Shown here in pieces: positions 34,893 to 40,529 of a stretch of 64,000 nucleotides of DNA. Under the pieces are notes generated by a model, which made no database searches, had not been told where the DNA came from, and worked only from the letters and a program-made list of their open reading frames with translations. Made by a program: the position numbers and the translations under genes. The DNA is from Hymenobacter nitidus (GTDB taxonomy: Bacteria; Bacteroidota; Bacteroidia; Cytophagales; Hymenobacteraceae): positions 62,001-126,000 of the forward strand of contig NZ_JAJADQ010000003.1 in assembly GCF_020447315.1 (NCBI RefSeq), given 5' to 3'. Every line of letters starts with the position of its first letter. Positions within the stretch are counted from its first letter, which is position 1.

Positions 34893-36293
34893 TTATGCAC
34901 CGTCCATGCGCACGATTTTGGGCGTGAAGGAGCCCAGCACGTCCACCAGCTCCTGCTGGCTGTGCATCACGGCATGGATGTCCTTGTAGGCCATGGGCGC
35001 CTCATCGACGCCTCCGCCCTGCAATACCACGTCGTGCGCGGCCAGGTACTGGCGCACCTGCGACTCGCTCAGTTCCTGCTTGGCGCGGGTGCGCGACATC
35101 AGCCGCCCCGCCCCGTGCGAGGCCGAGCCCAGGGACTCGGCCACGCCCCGGCCGCGCACGATAAAGCCGGGGGCCGTCATCGAGCCGGGAATAATGCCCA
35201 GCACGCCCTTGCCGGCCGGCGTGGCGCCCTTGCGGTGCACGATTACCTCGCGCCCATCAGCCATTCGCTCTTTCCAGGCGAAGTTGTGGTGGTTTTCCAC
35301 TTTGGCCAGGGGCCGCTCGCCCAGGGCTTTGCTGAGGCGCTGGTGAATGTGGTGGTGACAGGCCGAAGCGTAGTCACCGGCCAGGTTCATGGCCGCCCAG
35401 TACTCCTGGCCCAGCTCACCGTCGAGGCCCAGCCAGGCCAGGTGCTTGGCTTCGGAGGGCAGCTGGCAGTTTTCCATGGCCAGCTTGGTGTAGTGGTTGG
35501 CCACGCTGGCGCCCAGGCCGCGGGAGCCGGAGTGCGAGAGCAAGCCCACGTACTGGCCCAGCGGCAAGCCCAGGTCATTGGTCGGGTCGGTGATGTCGAC
35601 AATGCCGAACTCGACGAAGTGGTTGCCGGAACCCGAGGTGCCGATTTGCTCGGCGGCCGTGGCCTGCTTGTTACGCAGGAAAGGCACGGCGCGGAACTCG
35701 TCGCGCTCCAATACCTCGTGGCCCAGCTTCTTGCCCCGGTCGAAGCCGGTGCGGTTGCCGAAGCGGGTGTTGTCGAGCAGGAGCTTCTGCACTTCCTGCA
35801 CCCGCTGGGCCAGAAACTTGGGCGGCAGGGCAAACACCGACAGCGCCATGCGGCACCCGATGTCGACGCCCACGGCGTAGGGAATCACCGCGTTGTCGGT
35901 AGCCAATACGCCGCCAATGGGCAGGCCGTAGCCGTGGTGGGCATCAGGCATGAGGGCTCCGGCGACGGTCACGGGCAGTTTCATAGCCGTATCCATCTGG
36001 TGCAGGGCCCCGGGCTCGATGTGCTCGGCCCCGTAGAGAGCGTAGGGCTTGCGGGCCACCAACTCGATGTGGCGCGACGGGGGCGGCAACAAAGCAGCGG
36101 CCACGTGGCTCCAGTCGAGGTGGGTGGAAAAGTCGTGGGGCGCGGCCAGAATGTGCTGGAGCAGGGCCAGCTGGTCGGTGAGGGAAATTTTTTTGAGGTG
36201 CTTGCGCTGCAATTGGGCAAGAGCAAGCCCGATGGCGCGACCTTCGGGGAAGCCAAGCTGCCGAAGGTCGTTGCCGCGTAGTTGTTGGGCCAT
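34893..36293 (-). CDS. rtcB: RtcB-type RNA ligase in the Rsr/Y-RNA operon (second copy)
   Basis: The 466-residue protein has all RtcB motifs: VGVDIGCRM, GSGNHFVEFG, LSHSGSRGLG, ENHHNFAW, VHRKGATPAGKGVLG and SASHGAGRLMSR with the guanylylated His. It ligates 3'-phosphate or cyclic-phosphate ends to 5'-OH RNA ends. It lies directly downstream of the Y-RNA array, which in turn follows the macrodomain and Rsr genes on the same strand, matching the known bacterial RNA-repair operons in which rsr, Y RNAs and rtcB go together. The leader has a strong hairpin (36344-36375). The sequence just before the ATG is CCTCC, not an SD site. Confidence 0.96.
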   Translation of the reverse strand: MAQQLRGNDLRQLGFPEGRAIGLALAQLQRKHLKKISLTDQLALLQHILAAPHDFSTHLDWSHVAAALLPPPSRHIELVARKPYALYGAEHIEPGALHQMDTAMKLPVTVAGALMPDAHHGYGLPIGGVLATDNAVIPYAVGVDIGCRMALSVFALPPKFLAQRVQEVQKLLLDNTRFGNRTGFDRGKKLGHEVLERDEFRAVPFLRNKQATAAEQIGTSGSGNHFVEFGIVDITDPTNDLGLPLGQYVGLLSHSGSRGLGASVANHYTKLAMENCQLPSEAKHLAWLGLDGELGQEYWAAMNLAGDYASACHHHIHQRLSKALGERPLAKVENHHNFAWKERMADGREVIVHRKGATPAGKGVLGIIPGSMTAPGFIVRGRGVAESLGSASHGAGRLMSRTRAKQELSESQVRQYLAAHDVVLQGGGVDEAPMAYKDIHAVMHSQQELVDVLGSFTPKIVRMDGA

Positions 36294-36405: not shown

Positions 36406-36507
36406 TTAGCCGAGCCGGAGCAACAGACCACCCGCGCTTGGGGTACTCGCGTAACACCCGCTGAATTGGTCGATGGAACGCGGACGTACGGCATCCGGCC
36501 CGGCTAA
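36406..36507 (-). ncRNA. Y-RNA-like unit 8, minimal type, followed by U-run
   Basis: End stem: 13 pairs, 36495-36507 with 36406-36418 (one G-U). After the stem comes UG-C-CGUAC on the 5' side and GUUG-C on the 3' side, as in the other units. The inner helix is UCCGCG/CGCGGG and the following motif is GUUCCAUCG. There is no tRNA-like T-arm or D-arm; the interior has only a GGGT/ACCC hairpin. Eight U residues (36394-36401) follow 4 bases after the stem, so the stem plus U-run can act as a terminator for the array. Confidence 0.75.
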
Positions 36508-36515
36508 ACAGAAGC

Positions 36516-36620
36516 CCAACCCGGGCCAGGGAACTAAGCGGCCAGCCTGCTATTGATGCCCGGGCACGGCGGCCCGCTACACCCCGAAGTATGGCTGGCC
36601 TACGCCACTTTCCCGGCTGG
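36516..36620 (-). ncRNA. Y-RNA-like unit 7, minimal type
   Basis: The end stem is CCGGG..AG with CU..CCCGG, with tandem A-G mismatches inside. The 5' core is UG-G-CGUAG and the 3' core GUU-C-CC, so the base pair that is C-G elsewhere is G-C here. The inner helix is GGCCAGCC/GGCUGGCC, 8 perfect pairs, then AUACUUCG. It has no T-arm or D-arm. About 105 nt. Confidence 0.7.
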
Positions 36621-36625
36621 ACTTC

Positions 36626-36765
36626 CCTCGAAGTGGGCAACAGGACGGGCGGCCCCTAAAAACTGTGCTCTACCCCTGAGCTACTGCCTTGCGGCAGGAA
36701 GGATTCGAACCTCCGACCCCAGCGCCCCTAGCGAAGTAAGGCTGCCCTACGGCACCACGTGAAGG
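36626..36765 (-). ncRNA. Y-RNA-like unit 6 with permuted tRNA-like domain
   Basis: The end stem is CCUUCACGUGG with CCACUUCGAGG (9 of 11 pairs), with core UGCCGUAG / GUUGCC, inner helix GGGCAGCC/GGCCGCCC and motif UUACUUCG. Then in order: T-arm GGAGGTTCGAATCCTTC (minus strand of 36698-36714), hairpin CTGCC-GCAA-GGCAG (36684-36697) and canonical D-arm TAGCTCAGGGGTAGAGC (36667-36683). The order T-arm, closed stem, D-arm is that of a circularly permuted tRNA. Confidence 0.85.
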
Positions 36766-36774
36766 AAAAACAAA

Positions 36775-36922
36775 CTGCTGACTCTGGGCTACAAGCGGTA
36801 GGCGTTGCTGCCGCGCTGTTGCCAGCGCAGCACCCGCCGCCGAAGCCGCGGGGTGCGGGAGTTGAACCCGTATTCCAAAGAATTACCGAAGTAGCGCCCA
36901 CCTACGGCACCTGTGGCAGCAG
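36775..36922 (-). ncRNA. Y-RNA-like unit 5, T-arm only
   Basis: The end stem is CUGCUG/CAGCAG with inner continuation, core UGCCGUAG / GUAGCC, inner helix GGUGGGCG/CGCCUACC (8 pairs) and motif CUACUUCG. The T-arm CGGGTTCAACTCCCG (36856-36870) is followed by a UUCG-capped stem and by hairpin GCGCTG-GCAA-CAGCGC (36813-36828). There is no canonical D-arm. TTTGTTTTT follows the end stem. Confidence 0.75.
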
Positions 36923-36931
36923 TAAGAAAAA

Positions 36932-37076
36932 CTCGTTGGGGCAACTAAGCGCCCAGCCCATTATCCTGCTCTAACCAGCTGAGATACCGCTATTCCGGAG
37001 AACAGCGAGAGGGATTCGAACCCCCGACCCGGGCATTAACAGTGCGAAGTAAGGCTGAGCTACGGCACCCAACGAG
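36932..37076 (-). ncRNA. Y-RNA-like unit 4 with permuted tRNA-like domain
   Basis: The end stem CUCGUUGGG/CCCAACGAG is perfect (9 pairs). Core UGCCGUAG / GUUGCC, inner helix CUCAGCC/GGGCUGGG, motif UUACUUCG. The T-arm GGGGGTTCGAATCCCTC (37009-37025) is followed by closed stem CGCTGTTC-TCCG-GAATAGCG (36988-37007) and D-arm ATCTCAGCTGGTTAGAGC (36968-36985). TTTTTC follows the end stem. A short hairpin with loop CUGUUAA lies before the T-arm. Confidence 0.85.
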
Positions 37077-37086
37077 GTACGATTCC

Positions 37087-37244
37087 GGTCTTGTTCGGGG
37101 CAACAAACGAAGCGCCCAAACAACTGGCGCGTCTACTTTTCGCCACTCGCGGCCCGGGGGCTACGAGGCGGGGCTCGAACCCGCACGCCTTGCGGCACCA
37201 GCTCCGAACGAAGGATTGCGCTCCTACGGCACCCGAAAAAGACC
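37087..37244 (-). ncRNA. Y-RNA-like unit 3, T-arm only
   Basis: The end stem GGUCUUUUUCGGG/CCCGAACAAGACC has 12 of 13 pairs. Core UGCCGUAG / GUUGCC, inner helix GGAGCGC/GCGCUUC and motif AUCCUUCG. The T-arm GCGGGTTCGAGCCCCGC (37168-37184) is followed by closed stem CTCG..CGAG (37146-37167), then a 5-bp stem TGGCG/CGCCA in the D-arm place that lacks canonical D-loop bases. Confidence 0.75.
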
Positions 37245-37256
37245 AGAAAACTATAT

Positions 37257-37397
37257 CCGCCGGGGTAATAAGTGGGAAACGTGGCCGAAGCCATTCTGCT
37301 CTACCAAGCTGAGCTATTCCGGCCAGCCGCAGCGGCCGACCAAAAGCGGGACTCGAACCCGCGACACGAAGGAACGCTTCCCGACGACACCCGGCGG
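37257..37397 (-). ncRNA. Y-RNA-like unit 2 with permuted tRNA-like domain
   Basis: The end stem is CCGCCGGG/CCCGGCGG (8 pairs). The core is UG-U-CGUCG / AUU-A-CC, so the C-G pair of other units is U-A here. Inner helix GGGAAGC/GUUUCCC, motif GUUCCUUCG. The T-arm GCGGGTTCGAGTCCCGC (37346-37362) is followed by closed stem CGGCCGC-TGCG-GCTGGCCG type (37320-37338) and canonical D-arm TAGCTCAGCTTGGTAGAGC (37298-37316). Confidence 0.85.
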
Positions 37398-37427
37398 GCT
37401 ATTTTAGGCATTAAAGTCAACCAAAGT

Positions 37428-37561
37428 CCAGGGCAACGGGCGGCGGGCGAGTGTTTTCCTGAGGCTGCCGAAGCAGCGCCAGCGGGATTCGAACCCGTAA
37501 CCGCGCGTTGCCGAACGGCCTGAAAACGAACCACGAAGTAACGCCCGGCTACGGCACCTGG
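37428..37561 (-). ncRNA. Y-RNA-like unit 1, T-arm only
   Basis: The end stem is CCAGG/CCUGG, core UGCCGUAG / GUUGCC, inner helix CGGGCG/CGCCCG and motif GUUACUUCG. The T-arm ACGGGTTCGAATCCCGC (37482-37498) is followed by hairpin GCTGC-TTCG-GCAGC (37464-37477). CTCAG follows but no full D-arm forms. It is the first unit of the array, about 107 bases after the macrodomain stop. Confidence 0.75.
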
Positions 37562-37667
37562 CCAGTGGCGGTAGCTACCAAGTTGCCGGCGGCAGGCGCG
37601 GCCCGTTTGGCCGAGCATTTAGGCCCCCGACAAGGTTGGTATTAGATGGTGAAGGAAGTCATGACAA

Positions 37668-38513
37668 TCAGACGGTTGTAAGGGTGAGAACCGCCAGCTC
37701 GACTTCAAATGCCCGGAGCACCGCTTGCGGGGGCTTGGGGTCGAAAATGGCGAAGTCGAGGCGCTGGAAGGAGGTGCGCCAGCCGGGTTCGGCCAGGGCT
37801 TCGGCAAAGAGCCGGGCTATCTGGGCCGGGTCGTTGCCGAACACCCCGCAGCCCCAGGCCCCGAGCACCAAGGCTTGGCAGCCGTGGCGGGCGGCCATGC
37901 CCAGCACCTGCCGGATGCGCCGCTGCATGGTGGGCTCCAATTCCGGCAACAGCCCCGGGGAGTTACGGCGCAGCGCCCCGGCATTCACGGCCGGCGAGGT
38001 GATGATGTCGACGCGGTAGGGCTCGGGAAGCCAGTCGCCGGCGTCGTTGCGCAGCACCGGCACGCCCGGCGAGTAGATGGCGTAGTCGCTGTAGAGGCCG
38101 TTGAGGTGGGCGTTGTGCTGGTACATTTCGGGGAACAGCAGCTGGCACGGATACAGTCCCGTGGAGCGGGCCAGGCTTTCTTCCTGGGCCTGACTGCCGC
38201 CCAGAAAGCCCCCACCGGGGTTGCGGGCCGAGGCGAAGTTGAGCACCCCGATGCGGGCAAATTCCCGGCTCAGGGCCGCGGCGGCTTCGAGCGTGGTGGC
38301 GTGGTACACGCGCACTGCGGCCGGAGCATTGCCAGAGGGTCCGGGTTCCTGCCCCACCGCTACGGCGTCCGCCGGCCGGTAGAGCAAGCTGCCTTGCGCG
38401 GCAGCGTGTTGCCAGGCCCCGATGCTGACTTCGGTGCCATTCGCGGAATAGCGGCCGGTTTCGAGGGCATCGAGGGTGAGGCGGGCCAGTTGTTGACGAT
38501 GTTCGCGGTTCAT
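37668..38513 (-). CDS. TIGR02452-type macrodomain / microbial PARG-like protein
   Basis: The 281-residue protein matches the microbial poly(ADP-ribose) glycohydrolase-like family (TIGR02452). It has an N-terminal helical part, then VLNFASARNPGGGFLGGSQA with QEESLARSTGLY, the PARG signature GGG-x6-8-QEE around residues 100-112. Near the C-terminus is ALVLGAWGCGVFGNDPAQIA, the macrodomain phosphate loop. Members bind and hydrolyse ADP-ribose bonds. Its place between rsr and the Y-RNA/rtcB genes suggests removal of ADP-ribose from RNA ends or from repair proteins; that is inference. Confidence 0.9.
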   Translation of the reverse strand: MNREHRQQLARLTLDALETGRYSANGTEVSIGAWQHAAAQGSLLYRPADAVAVGQEPGPSGNAPAAVRVYHATTLEAAAALSREFARIGVLNFASARNPGGGFLGGSQAQEESLARSTGLYPCQLLFPEMYQHNAHLNGLYSDYAIYSPGVPVLRNDAGDWLPEPYRVDIITSPAVNAGALRRNSPGLLPELEPTMQRRIRQVLGMAARHGCQALVLGAWGCGVFGNDPAQIARLFAEALAEPGWRTSFQRLDFAIFDPKPPQAVLRAFEVELAVLTLTTV

Positions 38514-38640: not shown

Positions 38641-40161
38641 CTACAGGTCTATTTTTTCAATTTCGGTCAGGGCCGAGCCGCCGTTTTCCAGGGCTTCCAG
38701 CACGTCGAACACTTTATCCGACCAGCCGGCAATAAGCGCCACGCCGTGGCCTTCGCGCACTTCGACCGGGGCCGAGCCGTGGCCGGCCAGGTCGAAGAGG
38801 TAGAGCCGGGCCTGGGGCGCCACCGTGCGGCGGTAGTCGAGCCAGGCCTGGGCCAGGGTGCCGCCGTCGCCGGTGCTGTTCCAGAGCTGGCAGTCGGTGA
38901 ACAGCATTACCTTATCGACCACCTCGCGCCGCTGCAACAGGTCCTGGACGACCAGGTAGCCGTTGGTGCTGTAGCCTACCTCGCCTTCGCGGCGGTAGAA
39001 CTCCTGCACGTTTTGCAGCACCCGGCCCTGGGGCAAGCTGATGCGCTTCCACGAGTCGCCGAACATGCCGGTAACCACGTGGCCGCAACGGCTTTGCAGC
39101 AGCATACCCAGCACCAGGCCCACGTCGTAGAGCAGCACCTTGCTGCGCTGCGACACCGGCTGCTGCATCGAGCCCGACACGTCGCAGGCCACGACCACGC
39201 GGGTGTCGGCCGCAAAACCGCGCAGGTTAGCCGCGCTGTGCCCAATGGCCGTTTCCAGCGCCTCCAGCACCCGGGCTACGTAGCCCGACTGCACCAGCAG
39301 TACCTCGCGGTAGGCCGCCAGAAAGCGGAAGGGCAGCTGTTTGGCGCGGGCCGCCGCAAACCGGTCACTGAGCGTGGCGCACACCTGCTCTATTGCCCCC
39401 GCCGACACGTCGGCTTCGAGGATGTTGCGCAGGTTGCGCAGCAAGGCCATGTAGCCCAGCTTGCCGCTGCCAATCAGGGTTTCCCAGGCCCTGCGGAAAG
39501 CCGTGGTGCGCTCCTCGGCCGAAACAAAGGCTTGCTGGCCCAGGGCCGACAGCTCGGTTTCCCAGGTGTAGGGCGTGGGCAGAGTGCCCTGCACCAGCTG
39601 GTCGAACAGGACCTGCTGCTCGGGCGTGCGGGCCGTGGGGTGCACCAGAAACAGGGCATCCCGCAGGCGCACCTGCCCGGCCCGGTCGTACTTGGCCAGC
39701 TGGTAGCCGTCAAACCGGTTGAAGGACAAGGCCAGGCCTTTCTGCACCTGCTTGGACAAGCGGTTGAGGGTTTTCACCCCGGCCCGCTCGTTGGCCAGCG
39801 CGTAGTAAGCCAGCAGCTCGGTGATTTCGTCGGCGCGCTGCACCACCCGGGCCACCAGGCGGCTCACCAGACTGTCGCCGCGGTGCAGGCGGGCCAGCTC
39901 CACGGTGAGTACCAGCGGCACGGTGCGCAGGTAGAGCTGCTCACGGGCATACACCGCCAGGCGGGCCACAAACGCGGGGTCGTTGCGGGCTACCAGCTCA
40001 CGCAGGCGCGACAAACGCGTGTCGGCTTTTTCGTAGAACTGGTCGCTGAGGGCGGCCGTGGCTACGGCGGCGTACAGCTCCAACTGGGGCGTAAGCAAGT
40101 AAGCGGCAGCTCCCGCGTGGTTAGTGGTTTTGGGTTTACGAAAGGTAAAGTTGAAGCGCAT
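38641..40161 (-). CDS. rsr: Rsr, bacterial Ro60 orthologue (TROVE + vWA)
   Basis: The 506-residue protein is a Ro60-type RNA-binding ring. The TROVE domain (about 20-300) is made of helical repeats, for example LSRLRELVARNDPAFVARLA and SGKLGYMALLRNLRNILEAD. A vWA domain follows (about 318-500) with the metal-site motif VVACDVSGSMQQP (DxSxS near residue 327) and MLFTDCQLW. Ro proteins bind Y RNAs on the outside of the ring and misfolded RNA ends in the hole, and in Deinococcus work with PNPase. It is the first gene of the minus-strand set rsr, macrodomain, Y array, rtcB, with a 127-bp gap to the macrodomain gene. Confidence 0.95.
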   Translation of the reverse strand: MRFNFTFRKPKTTNHAGAAAYLLTPQLELYAAVATAALSDQFYEKADTRLSRLRELVARNDPAFVARLAVYAREQLYLRTVPLVLTVELARLHRGDSLVSRLVARVVQRADEITELLAYYALANERAGVKTLNRLSKQVQKGLALSFNRFDGYQLAKYDRAGQVRLRDALFLVHPTARTPEQQVLFDQLVQGTLPTPYTWETELSALGQQAFVSAEERTTAFRRAWETLIGSGKLGYMALLRNLRNILEADVSAGAIEQVCATLSDRFAAARAKQLPFRFLAAYREVLLVQSGYVARVLEALETAIGHSAANLRGFAADTRVVVACDVSGSMQQPVSQRSKVLLYDVGLVLGMLLQSRCGHVVTGMFGDSWKRISLPQGRVLQNVQEFYRREGEVGYSTNGYLVVQDLLQRREVVDKVMLFTDCQLWNSTGDGGTLAQAWLDYRRTVAPQARLYLFDLAGHGSAPVEVREGHGVALIAGWSDKVFDVLEALENGGSALTEIEKIDL

Positions 40162-40338: not shown

Positions 40339-40378
40339 ATGAAAAAAGCCCGGCTTTTCGGGGCCGGGCTTTTTTCAT
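40339..40378. terminator. Perfect 16-bp hairpin terminator
   Basis: Arms ATGAAAAAAGCCCGGC / GCCGGGCTTTTTTCAT with an 8-base loop. A/T runs on both sides allow use in either direction. It lies 178 bases upstream of rsr, so it may shield rsr from upstream minus-strand transcription or act as an attenuator. Confidence 0.75.
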
Positions 40379-40529
40379 GGATACGTCACGTAGGATTCAG
40401 CTACGTAAATTGTCCAACGAAAAATCCCGGTCACACCAGTCCCGCTCACGGCTTTGCTGCCGTTTATTCGGGACCTGGGGCATAAATAGTGCGGATGAGA
40501 GGCGCATGACCAATGGGGTGTAAAACAAA

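What the first reader, a model, noticed from the sequence alone, without database searches (positions are those of the whole stretch)
36406..37561. Eight-unit tandem array of Y-RNA-like RNAs between the Rsr/macrodomain genes and rtcB
Eight units of 102-158 nt are tiled on the minus strand with linkers of only 5-30 nt. All share an end stem, core UGNCGU on the 5' side and (G/A)UUNCC-like on the 3' side, an inner helix and a (U/C)UUCG-like motif. The base pair after the UG bulge is C-G in units 1, 3, 4, 5, 6 and 8, U-A in unit 2 and G-C in unit 7, and the inner helix keeps pairing in all eight despite different sequences. Known bacterial Y RNAs lie beside rsr and rtcB and mimic tRNA. To my knowledge one or a few per locus is usual; I cannot check whether arrays of eight have been described.
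Basis: partly seen in the sequence, partly recalled or inferred. Interest (0 to 1): 0.95.

Follow-up and report, generated by a model that had tools for sequence, protein, structure and literature searches.

The report
Y-RNA array displaying tRNA anticodons
Next to genes for a Ro60-like RNA-binding protein and an RNA-repair ligase, this relative of Hymenobacter carries eight tandem Y-RNA-shaped units, and such arrays in its relatives repeatedly contain exact copies of tRNA anticodon loops, so they would likely act as decoys that keep tRNA-cutting enzymes away from real tRNAs.

Summary
Confirmed, and more interesting than reported. Eight units (36411-37565, minus strand, 92-150 nt, linkers 11-25 nt) lie between rsr/PARG-like genes and rtcB. 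A covariance model built mostly from relatives finds these eight and nothing else in the window. The unit classes keep their order in relatives with rtcB (626 of 658 class pairs). Arrays of 3-11 units are normal in Hymenobacter, 1-7 in other Bacteroidota; rsr-less relatives tested lack them. So these are bacterial Y RNAs, and a multi-unit array is this lineage's rule. The new part: many units carry a tRNA anticodon arm. At exact tRNA spacing, a 7-nt-loop hairpin precedes the variable-loop and T-arm equivalents, and base pairs 27-43 and 28-42 close across the T/acceptor/D domain. Loops match real anticodon loops (Lys, Asn, Asp, His, Gln, Pro and others), and orthologous class D units switch anticodon between species. 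In the window, unit 4 shows tRNA-Asn(GUU). Rfam's YrlA consensus has no such hairpin; my searches found no description in print, but the key Y-RNA papers were not readable here. Likely function, untested: Rsr-docked anticodon-nuclease decoys beside the ligase RtcB.

The parts
38641..40161 (-). rsr, Ro60-like protein (TROVE PF05731 plus vWA_Ro60 PF25045)
   Evidence: a 7-sequence profile with it matches Ro60 1yvp and Rsr 2nvo in the PDB
37668..38513 (-). microbial PARG-like gene (PF10021); a relative of it lies between rsr and the array in 20 of 66 family loci
37424..37565 (-). Y-RNA unit 1 (class A): end stem, inner helix, T-arm, no canonical D-arm
   Evidence: R1 48.4 bits, E 1.1e-9
37256..37398 (-). 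Y-RNA unit 2 (class B): T-arm, acceptor-like stem, D-arm; U-A after the bulge
   Evidence: R1 90.9 bits; Rfam YrlA 37.3 bits (below cut-off)
37091..37240 (-). Y-RNA unit 3 (class C): T-arm, another hairpin in place of the D-arm (read by eye)
   Evidence: R1 60.9 bits
36932..37076 (-). Y-RNA unit 4 (class D): circularly permuted tRNA domain with anticodon arm
   Evidence: R1 106.1 bits
37033..37045 (-). anticodon hairpin of unit 4: GCA-CUGUUAA-UGC, loop identical to this genome's tRNA-Asn(GUU)
37031..37032 (-). CC, equivalent of tRNA 42-43, predicted to pair with 36965-36966
   Evidence: sequence; covariation in relatives
37009..37025 (-). T-arm of unit 4, preceded by variable-region equivalent GGGUC at 37026-37030
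   Evidence: sequence
36988..37007 (-). sealed acceptor-like stem of unit 4
   Evidence: helix 4: 7 of 7 pairs change on both sides
36968..36984 (-). D-arm of unit 4 (its outermost pair is a U.C mismatch)
36965..36966 (-). GG, equivalent of tRNA 27-28
   Evidence: sequence
36779..36918 (-). Y-RNA unit 5 (class E): T-arm, long hairpin in place of the D-arm (by eye), mismatched end stem
   Evidence: R1 50.6 bits
36628..36763 (-). Y-RNA unit 6 (class F): T-arm, acceptor, D-arm; anticodon-like loop CUAGGGG with 4 of 5 arm pairs by eye
   Evidence: R1 107.5 bits, (in training set); Rfam YrlA 35.8 bits (below cut-off)
36521..36616 (-). Y-RNA unit 7 (class G): no T- or D-arm; G-C after the bulge
   Evidence: R1 35.0 bits
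36411..36502 (-). Y-RNA unit 8 (class H): no T- or D-arm; many relatives carry an Asp(GUC)-type hairpin here, this one does not
   Evidence: R1 39.5 bits; R2 80.4 bits (in its training set)
34893..36293 (-). rtcB, RNA ligase (PF01139)

Best explanation
Eight tandem Y-RNA-like units lie between rsr and rtcB, several of their classes carry a tRNA anticodon arm, and they are predicted to be transcribed, docked on Rsr by their shared stem, and likely used as decoys that draw anticodon nucleases away from real tRNAs, with RtcB nearby that would reseal what is cut. Shown by sequence: array, class order, covarying stems, tRNA-type T- and D-arms, exact anticodon loops in class D, F and H units of relatives and in unit 4 here, and co-occurrence with rsr. 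Inferred: one or a few transcripts are cut in the AU-richer linkers into single RNAs; the end stem binds Rsr; the domain folds into a tRNA-like L with a sealed acceptor, so it cannot be charged; anticodon nucleases bind or cut the displayed loop. Different units display different anticodons, and class D orthologues switch anticodon between species, as a changing panel of decoys would.
For: Model hits: the eight units and nothing else in the window, and 8 matches in the genome (82 of 2,594 first-look candidates scored). Class order: 626 of 658 class pairs in 54 loci. Covariation in helices not used for selection: inner helix 7 of 8 pairs, acceptor-like 7 of 7. Anticodon arm: 61 of 117 T+D units have 29-31/39-41 complementary at exact tRNA spacing (permuted mean 16.8, max 30 of 1000 shuffles), 59 of these 61 also pair 27-43 and 28-42 (permuted mean 33.7, max 43), U33 in 53, R37 in 54; moving the hairpin 1-4 nt leaves 1-16 complementary, none with anticodon grammar. 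Exact own-genome loops in 62 of 396 units against 2.6 in shuffles and 2, 0 and 1 with reversed, complemented and reverse-complemented loops. Several anticodons in one array, e.g. Asn, Lys, Asp in L056. Class D switches among Lys, Asn, Asp, His, Gln. Also outside the family. Positions 15-48: G-C 107, A-U 6, other 4 of 117. rtcB follows the array in 54 of 66 loci. Hughes et al. suggest YrlA may competitively inhibit an anticodon nuclease (PMC7790460, passages).
Against: No transcript, binding or cleavage data. In the window only unit 4 has an exact loop, and 334 of 396 units in the family set have none. In units without the hairpin the 27-28/42-43 pairs are also common (42 of 56), so those two pairs fit a plain YrlA-type helix too and are not proof of an arm by themselves. 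In classes B and F hairpins with 5-nt loops are as frequent, or nearly, as with 7. Salmonella YrlA was not cut by the SOS-induced anticodon nuclease (PMC7790460, passage), though Rfam's YrlA consensus lacks the hairpin. No PrrC/RloC-type AAA_13 (PF13166) match in this genome (only that family tested). 12 of 66 loci have no rtcB in the stretch fetched. In one set of other Bacteroidota only 3 of 10 hairpins keep the 27-28/42-43 pairs. The arm is split by the Rsr stem, so a nuclease might not accept it.
Confidence: 0.45

Rival explanations
1. Adaptor set: each Y RNA docks on Rsr and recruits a different protein (PNPase, tRNA-binding or tRNA-modifying enzymes); anticodon arms are recruitment surfaces, not nuclease bait.
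For: In Deinococcus Y RNA tethers Rsr to PNPase, and YrlA is a substrate of the tRNA-modifying enzymes DusA and TruB (PMC8394870, passages). Apical domains differ between classes while stem motifs are shared.
Against: Does not by itself explain why orthologous class D units switch anticodon between species while flanks stay alike.
Confidence: 0.27
2. Relic: the units derive from permuted tRNA genes, and the anticodon loops are leftovers; the array mainly sets Rsr gating by dose.
For: T-arm, D-arm and variable region are tRNA-like in the T+D units; Y RNA is reported to sequester Rsr and inhibit it (PMC4030889, passage).
Against: Loop grammar and both split base pairs are kept with compensatory change in several genera and in phage contigs, and anticodons change to other real anticodons, which a decaying relic would not be expected to do.
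Confidence: 0.15
3. Damage sensor: cutting a displayed loop frees or alters the Rsr complex or yields cyclic-phosphate fragments that switch on RNA repair.
For: In Salmonella tRNA fragments with cyclic phosphate bind RtcR and activate the rsr-yrlBA-rtcBA operon (PMC7790460, passages).
Against: No rtcR-like gene among the 9 neighbouring proteins tested; rtcR was not sought genome-wide.
Confidence: 0.1
4. Chance or artefact: GC-rich repeats misread as RNAs.
For: Some single-sequence folds are poor.
Against: Permutation, shuffle, slide and spacing controls and co-occurrence with rsr.
Confidence: 0.01

Closest known systems
YrlA, bacterial Y RNA (Rfam RF02553)
   Same: Beside rsr (and rtcB); end stem, inner helix, then T-arm, acceptor-like and D-arm in permuted tRNA order; similar 3' motif (CUUGUCGCC there, CUUGUUGCCC in many units here). 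Model R1 recovers RF02553 members in two Rhizobium plasmids (98.4 and 95.1 Rfam bits; 53 and 50.4 R1 bits).
   Different: Window units score 37.3 bits at best against a cut-off of 69. Rfam's consensus closes the anticodon-stem position as a plain helix without a hairpin; many class D, F and H units carry a 7-nt-loop anticodon-like hairpin. Eight units here.
rsr-yrlBA-rtcBA RNA repair operon of Salmonella
   Same: Ro60-like gene, Y RNAs and rtcB together (PMC7790460, passages).
   Different: Two Y RNAs there (by the operon name) against eight here; PARG-like gene inserted; no rtcA or rtcR among the 9 neighbours tested.
Vertebrate Y RNA cluster
   Same: Several Y RNAs; four human ones, Y1, Y3, Y4, Y5 (PMC4030889, abstract and passages); that they lie in one cluster is recalled and fits a reference title seen.
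   Different: Individual RNA polymerase III genes (PMC4030889, abstract); no tRNA domain (recalled).
Phage tRNAs that resist host anticodon nucleases
   Same: tRNA-type anticodon arms set against anticodon nucleases; phage tRNA-Lys variants escape PARIS (PMC11455837, passages).
   Different: Those are working tRNAs; here the acceptor is sealed, the order permuted and the RNA predicted to dock on Rsr.

Membership tests
Bacterial Y RNA (YrlA-type) | Encoded beside a Ro60 orthologue (rsr) | tested here: met
   TROVE + vWA_Ro60; 16 of 16 intact-rsr genomes tested have 6-10 matches with best E 1.7e-21 or lower, 0 of 20 rsr-less relatives tested have a hit of 45 bits or more (82 candidates scored per genome)
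Bacterial Y RNA (YrlA-type) | Stem formed by the 5' and 3' ends with a conserved bulge/internal-loop motif | tested here: met
   (relatives in 59, 60, 106 were chosen by this stem, so one search is the fair test)
Bacterial Y RNA (YrlA-type) | tRNA-like domain: T-arm, acceptor-like stem, D-arm | tested here: met
   units 2, 4, 6 have T- and D-arm; 1, 3, 5 the T-arm without D-arm; 7, 8 neither
Bacterial Y RNA (YrlA-type) | Score at or above Rfam RF02553 gathering cut-off (69) | tested here: not met
   37.3, 35.8, 23.4 bits in the window; so filed as Y RNAs, not as RF02553 members
Bacterial Y RNA (YrlA-type) | Expressed RNA bound to Rsr | not testable with these tools
   no RNA-seq or binding data
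tRNA | Standard tRNA gene | tested here: not met
   ARAGORN: 0 tRNAs in the window
Anticodon-arm mimic | 5-bp arm, 7-nt loop, U33, R37, correct distance to variable region and T-arm | tested here: met
   61 of 117 T+D units of relatives; unit 4 of the window has all five pairs by sequence and is row 1 of A7, though its D-stem mismatch keeps it out of the 117
Anticodon-nuclease decoy | Bound or cut by an anticodon nuclease | not testable with these tools
   needs biochemistry

The most novel reading that the evidence does not exclude
Bacterial Y-RNA arrays are panels of anticodon baits: permuted, uncharged tRNA look-alikes hung on the Ro60 ring, each showing a different anticodon, renewed by anticodon switching in an arms race with anticodon nucleases of toxins, defence systems and phages, and serviced by RtcB. 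Phages with rsr carry the same devices.
Probability: 0.38. Interest if true: 0.96.

Novelty: new variant of a known kind. Interest (0 to 1): 0.88.

Why it matters
What bacterial Y RNAs do beyond a few species, and why rsr sits beside the RNA ligase RtcB, is open. Anticodon arms in Y RNAs, with named anticodons that differ by unit and by species, give a direct prediction: which nuclease each RNA should bind or be cut by. It would join Ro60 biology, tRNA damage and phage-host conflict, and it can be tested with RNAs made in vitro.

Tried and rejected
Rejected: (1) tRNA genes or a tRNA array: ARAGORN finds none in the window. Partial hits of model R1 (positions about 47-111 or 50-103) elsewhere look like junctions of tandem tRNA genes, where a T-arm is followed by the next D-arm; I counted only full-length hits. 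(2) Recent tandem duplication: units within the window are hardly more alike (mean 0.68) than shuffled pairs (0.63), while orthologues in four close relatives reach 0.73-0.91. (3) Protein coding: ORFs of 105 and 121 aa overlap the array; I did not search them for homologues, and the covarying stems argue against. (4) An intrinsic terminator for every unit: only 97 of 269 linkers in the family set hold TTTT, so I think much of the array is read through and processed, which is inference.

Led nowhere: AAA_13 (PrrC/RloC-type) search of the genome, no match. The short-type model R2 adds little. Ten paper searches listed nothing whose title or abstract start is on Y-RNA arrays or anticodon arms in bacterial Y RNAs, and the passages I read in ten papers say nothing of them; Chen 2014, Sim and Wolin 2018 and Wang 2018 are not held, so absence from print is not shown.

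Selection to be aware of: units in relatives were found with a descriptor that requires end-stem pairing, so helix 1 is partly circular. Class T+D requires T-loop and D-arm letters, so A14, G15 and G18G19 are partly selected; positions 8, 9, 26-28 and 29-48 are not. A7 holds the window unit plus 32 of 35 units listed (three, L032:4198, L052:5397 and L053:5164, I left out without a reason); that list keeps one unit per arm-and-loop type, only units with the hairpin, and drops six loop types that I judged chance hits. keep the best 80 of 588 and 580 loci. One search covered 55 of the 80 viral loci; one search used 150 of the 179 matches, and 47 and 24 of the stronger of the 144 matches. One search examined 20 of the 81 rsr-less genomes and scored 82 first-look candidates per genome.
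Full report
OBSERVATION. The window holds, on the minus strand, rsr (38641-40161; TROVE plus Ro60 vWA), a microbial PARG-like gene (37668-38513), eight RNA-like units (36411-37565) and rtcB (34893-36293). UGNCGU occurs at eight places. The eight 5' and 3' arms match each other better than in any other of the 40,320 possible pairings, and so do the inner-helix arms that I read out.

RELATIVES. rsr is found in 69 of 150 genomes of the family, fragments included. In 66 rsr loci examined (65 fetched, including a second divergent rsr of one genome, plus the window) a descriptor of the end stem finds 3 or more hits downstream of rsr, outside the PARG gene, in 65; the exception is that second rsr. 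Shuffled sequence gives means of 0.0-2.3 per region and the reverse strand 0-4 hits; the descriptor missed one of the window's own eight (unit 5). rtcB follows in 54 of the 66; the 12 others show none in the stretch fetched. Profile classes built from the eight window units recur in the 54 rtcB-linked loci with 626 of 658 class pairs in A-to-H order (shuffled 0.50, max 0.56); 29 of 54 loci are fully in order, and the main departure is class H before F in 15 of 41. Losses and duplications are common. In 11 loci without rtcB (Pontibacter- and Rufibacter-like among them) the order is not kept (21 of 57, no better than shuffled), and class names there are uncertain.

COVARIATION AND MODELS. In 23 class-D-like units, 89.7% of cells are paired and 26 of 35 pairs change on both sides; 0 of 500 shuffles reach this, and sliding the partners gives at most 47.3%. 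In 19 class H units, 92.0% and 14 of 19 pairs. The end stem was a selection criterion there; the inner helix and the acceptor-like stem were not. Model R1 (35 units, one of them from the window) finds exactly eight hits in the window at E up to 1 and eight in the 5.5 Mb genome at E up to 0.01, where 82 of 2,594 first-look candidates were scored. Classes A, C, E, G and H, not in the training set, are found in the window at E 1.4e-12 to 1.6e-6.

HOW COMMON. In 36 named Hymenobacter/Solirubrum loci R1 gives 240 hits, all full length and on the rsr strand, median 7 per locus, range 3-11. In 44 other Bacteroidota loci, some of them MAGs, 179 hits, of which 166 full length, median 4, range 1-7, two or more in 43 (tallied by hand). 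A multi-unit array is therefore ordinary in this lineage; eight is near the top of the usual range. The 16 genomes tested with intact rsr have 6-10 matches each (a few are background elsewhere in the genome), best E 1.7e-21 or lower. The 20 rsr-less relatives tested have 0-2 weak matches, none of 45 bits or more. Of four genomes with only rsr fragments, G036 keeps three decaying units beside the remnant (47.1, 39.4 and 28.8 bits), G031 one (35.3), and G060 and G087 none nearby. Array and rsr appear to live and die together.

tRNA-LIKE DOMAIN. Units 1-6 have a T-arm, units 2, 4 and 6 also a D-arm, 7 and 8 neither. Order along the chain in T+D units: end stem, inner helix, variable-like GGUC, T-arm, sealed acceptor-like stem, D-arm, inner helix, end stem. 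Among 117 family units with T- and D-arm, U8 and A9 are each kept in 116 and C48 in 108, none of which was selected for. Positions 15 and 48, a tertiary pair in tRNA (recalled), are G-C in 107, A-U in 6 and other in 4 (related sequences, so the p-value of 1.6e-8 overstates it).

ANTICODON ARMS. Just before the variable region many units have a hairpin with a 7-nt loop. In class D, 57 of 90 units have such a hairpin anchored at the CUUCG motif, against 6-17 for loops of 4-6 and 8-10 nt; classes B and F show no such clear preference (5-nt loops 26 and 25, 7-nt 26 and 28), H has 25 with 7 and 20 with 9. ARAGORN read 39 distinct tRNAs with 37 distinct anticodon loops from the window's own genome. 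Exact matches among anchored hairpins: class D 23 of 90 units (Lys 16, His 2, Asp 2, Asn 2, Gln 1), class H 15 of 38 (Asp 12, Asn 3), class F 3 of 48 (Pro 2, Leu 1), classes A, B, C, E and G none; shuffles average 0.02 or fewer per class, and reversed or complemented loop sets give 0. Counting any position, 62 of 396 units in 35 of 65 loci carry an exact loop on a hairpin (63 matches), against 2.6 (max 5) in 20 dinucleotide shuffles and 2, 0 and 1 for reversed, complemented and reverse-complemented loops; L056 shows Asn, Lys and Asp, L067 Lys, Asn, Pro and Asp, L036 Lys, Phe and Asp. Six of the 63 are a Pro(GGG)-like loop, mostly at another place, and one an Arg(CCG)-like loop far from the motif; these may be chance.

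SPLIT ARM. If the new ends of the permuted tRNA lie inside the anticodon stem, positions 27-28 after the D-arm should pair with 42-43 before the variable region. Of 117 T+D units, 61 have 29-31/39-41 complementary at exact tRNA spacing (permuted mean 16.8, max 30). All 61 pair 27-43 and 59 pair both 27-43 and 28-42 (permuted mean 33.7, max 43). U33 is kept in 53, R37 in 54, A26 in 60. Shifted by 1-4 nt either way, 1-16 units are complementary and none shows the YU...R. grammar or an exact loop. Related sequences are counted many times: among 42 distinct arm-and-loop combinations 40 keep both split pairs, 29 the grammar and 9 an exact loop. On 33 selected units the two pairs covary: C-G 21 and G-C 12 of 33; C-G 20, U-A 10, G-C 1, U-G 1, unpaired 1. 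By class, 41 of 55 D, 14 of 27 F and 6 of 35 B units have the hairpin; B may be chance. Against specificity: 42 of the 56 units without the hairpin also pair 27-28 with 42-43, as the plain helix of Rfam's YrlA would. The most economical reading for D and F is a whole tRNA, circularly permuted, with the Rsr-binding stem inserted into the 5' strand of the anticodon stem and the acceptor sealed. The window's unit 4 has all five arm pairs by sequence; a D-stem mismatch keeps it out of the 117.

BREADTH. Other Bacteroidota, named (150 best R1 matches): 20 of 117 T-loop units (permuted 7.2, max 14), 17 with grammar, 8 exact, 19 of 19 readable with the split pairs. Phage, viral and plasmid units: 17 of 46 (3.9, max 9), 10 with grammar, 2 exact, 16 of 16 readable split. 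A third set, unnamed Bacteroidota: 10 of 23 (2.0, max 6), 5 with grammar, 2 exact, but only 3 of 10 split. Among 18 hits from plasmid-borne rsr loci, most from other phyla, 7 have hairpin and split pairs: Deinococcus taeanensis, Rhodococcus (two units, Asn- and Pro-type loops), Methylosinus, Novosphingobium, R. etli and R. leguminosarum (the last without U33); Rhizobium Kim5 has the hairpin without split pairs or U33 (no permutation control). In R. etli and Kim5 one Y RNA passes Rfam's YrlA cut-off and lacks the hairpin, while its neighbour carries one.

MECHANISM. Shown: sequence anatomy, conservation, co-occurrence. From papers (passages only): Y RNA tethers Rsr to PNPase in Deinococcus and YrlA is modified by DusA and TruB (PMC8394870); in Salmonella, tRNA fragments with cyclic-phosphate ends switch on the operon, YrlA fragments were not detected, and the authors suggest it may competitively inhibit the nuclease (PMC7790460); PARIS AriB cuts tRNA-Lys, and phage tRNA-Lys with altered anticodon arms escapes (PMC11455837). 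Inferred: the anticodon-bearing units are nuclease decoys docked on Rsr, with RtcB to reseal them. Anticodon switching in class D orthologues with similar flanks is the strongest hint of an opponent. Adaptor, sensor and relic readings remain open.

LIMITS. No expression, binding or cleavage data. Only unit 4 of the window has an exact loop; unit 6 has a grammar-fitting loop with an imperfect arm. Counts are over related sequences. The primary Y-RNA papers could not be read, so arrays or anticodon arms may already have been noted there.

Noticed in passing
L163 (viral contig IMGVR_UViG_3300031111_000023), 5677-5933 and 7844-8543: A viral contig with seven full-length Y-RNA hits around rsr, one with an exact Thr(UGU) anticodon loop.
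   Followed up: partly
G036:C30:92212-93349; G031:C1:889908-890393: rsr reduced to fragments, with decaying Y-RNA units just downstream.
   Followed up: partly
L045, L055, L056, L061, L063, L065: shortly after the rsr stop: Conserved GC-rich hairpin of the type GGCCGGGCAATAAAGCGGAA-CCCCCGGCC ahead of the first unit; possible terminator, leader or processing signal.
   Followed up: no
e.g. L067, L073, L074, L081 upstream of class A: Another conserved element ahead of unit A (GGCAGCCG-GGCCGGAACGG-CCGTTCCA), perhaps a leader or a further small RNA.
   Followed up: no
L044, L055, L058, L059, L061-L064: after the last (class F) unit: U-rich tract directly behind the last end stem, as an intrinsic terminator would have; in the window a run of eight T follows unit 8.
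   Followed up: no
window 40339-40424: Sub-threshold Rfam Thr_leader hit; looks like a two-way intrinsic terminator upstream of rsr.
   Followed up: no
L257 (Hymenobacter sp. CA2-7): Largest array found: 11 full-length hits.
   Followed up: no
G146:C16 (L095): A second, divergent rsr (38% identity) with no Y-RNA descriptor hit next to it in the stretch fetched.
   Followed up: no
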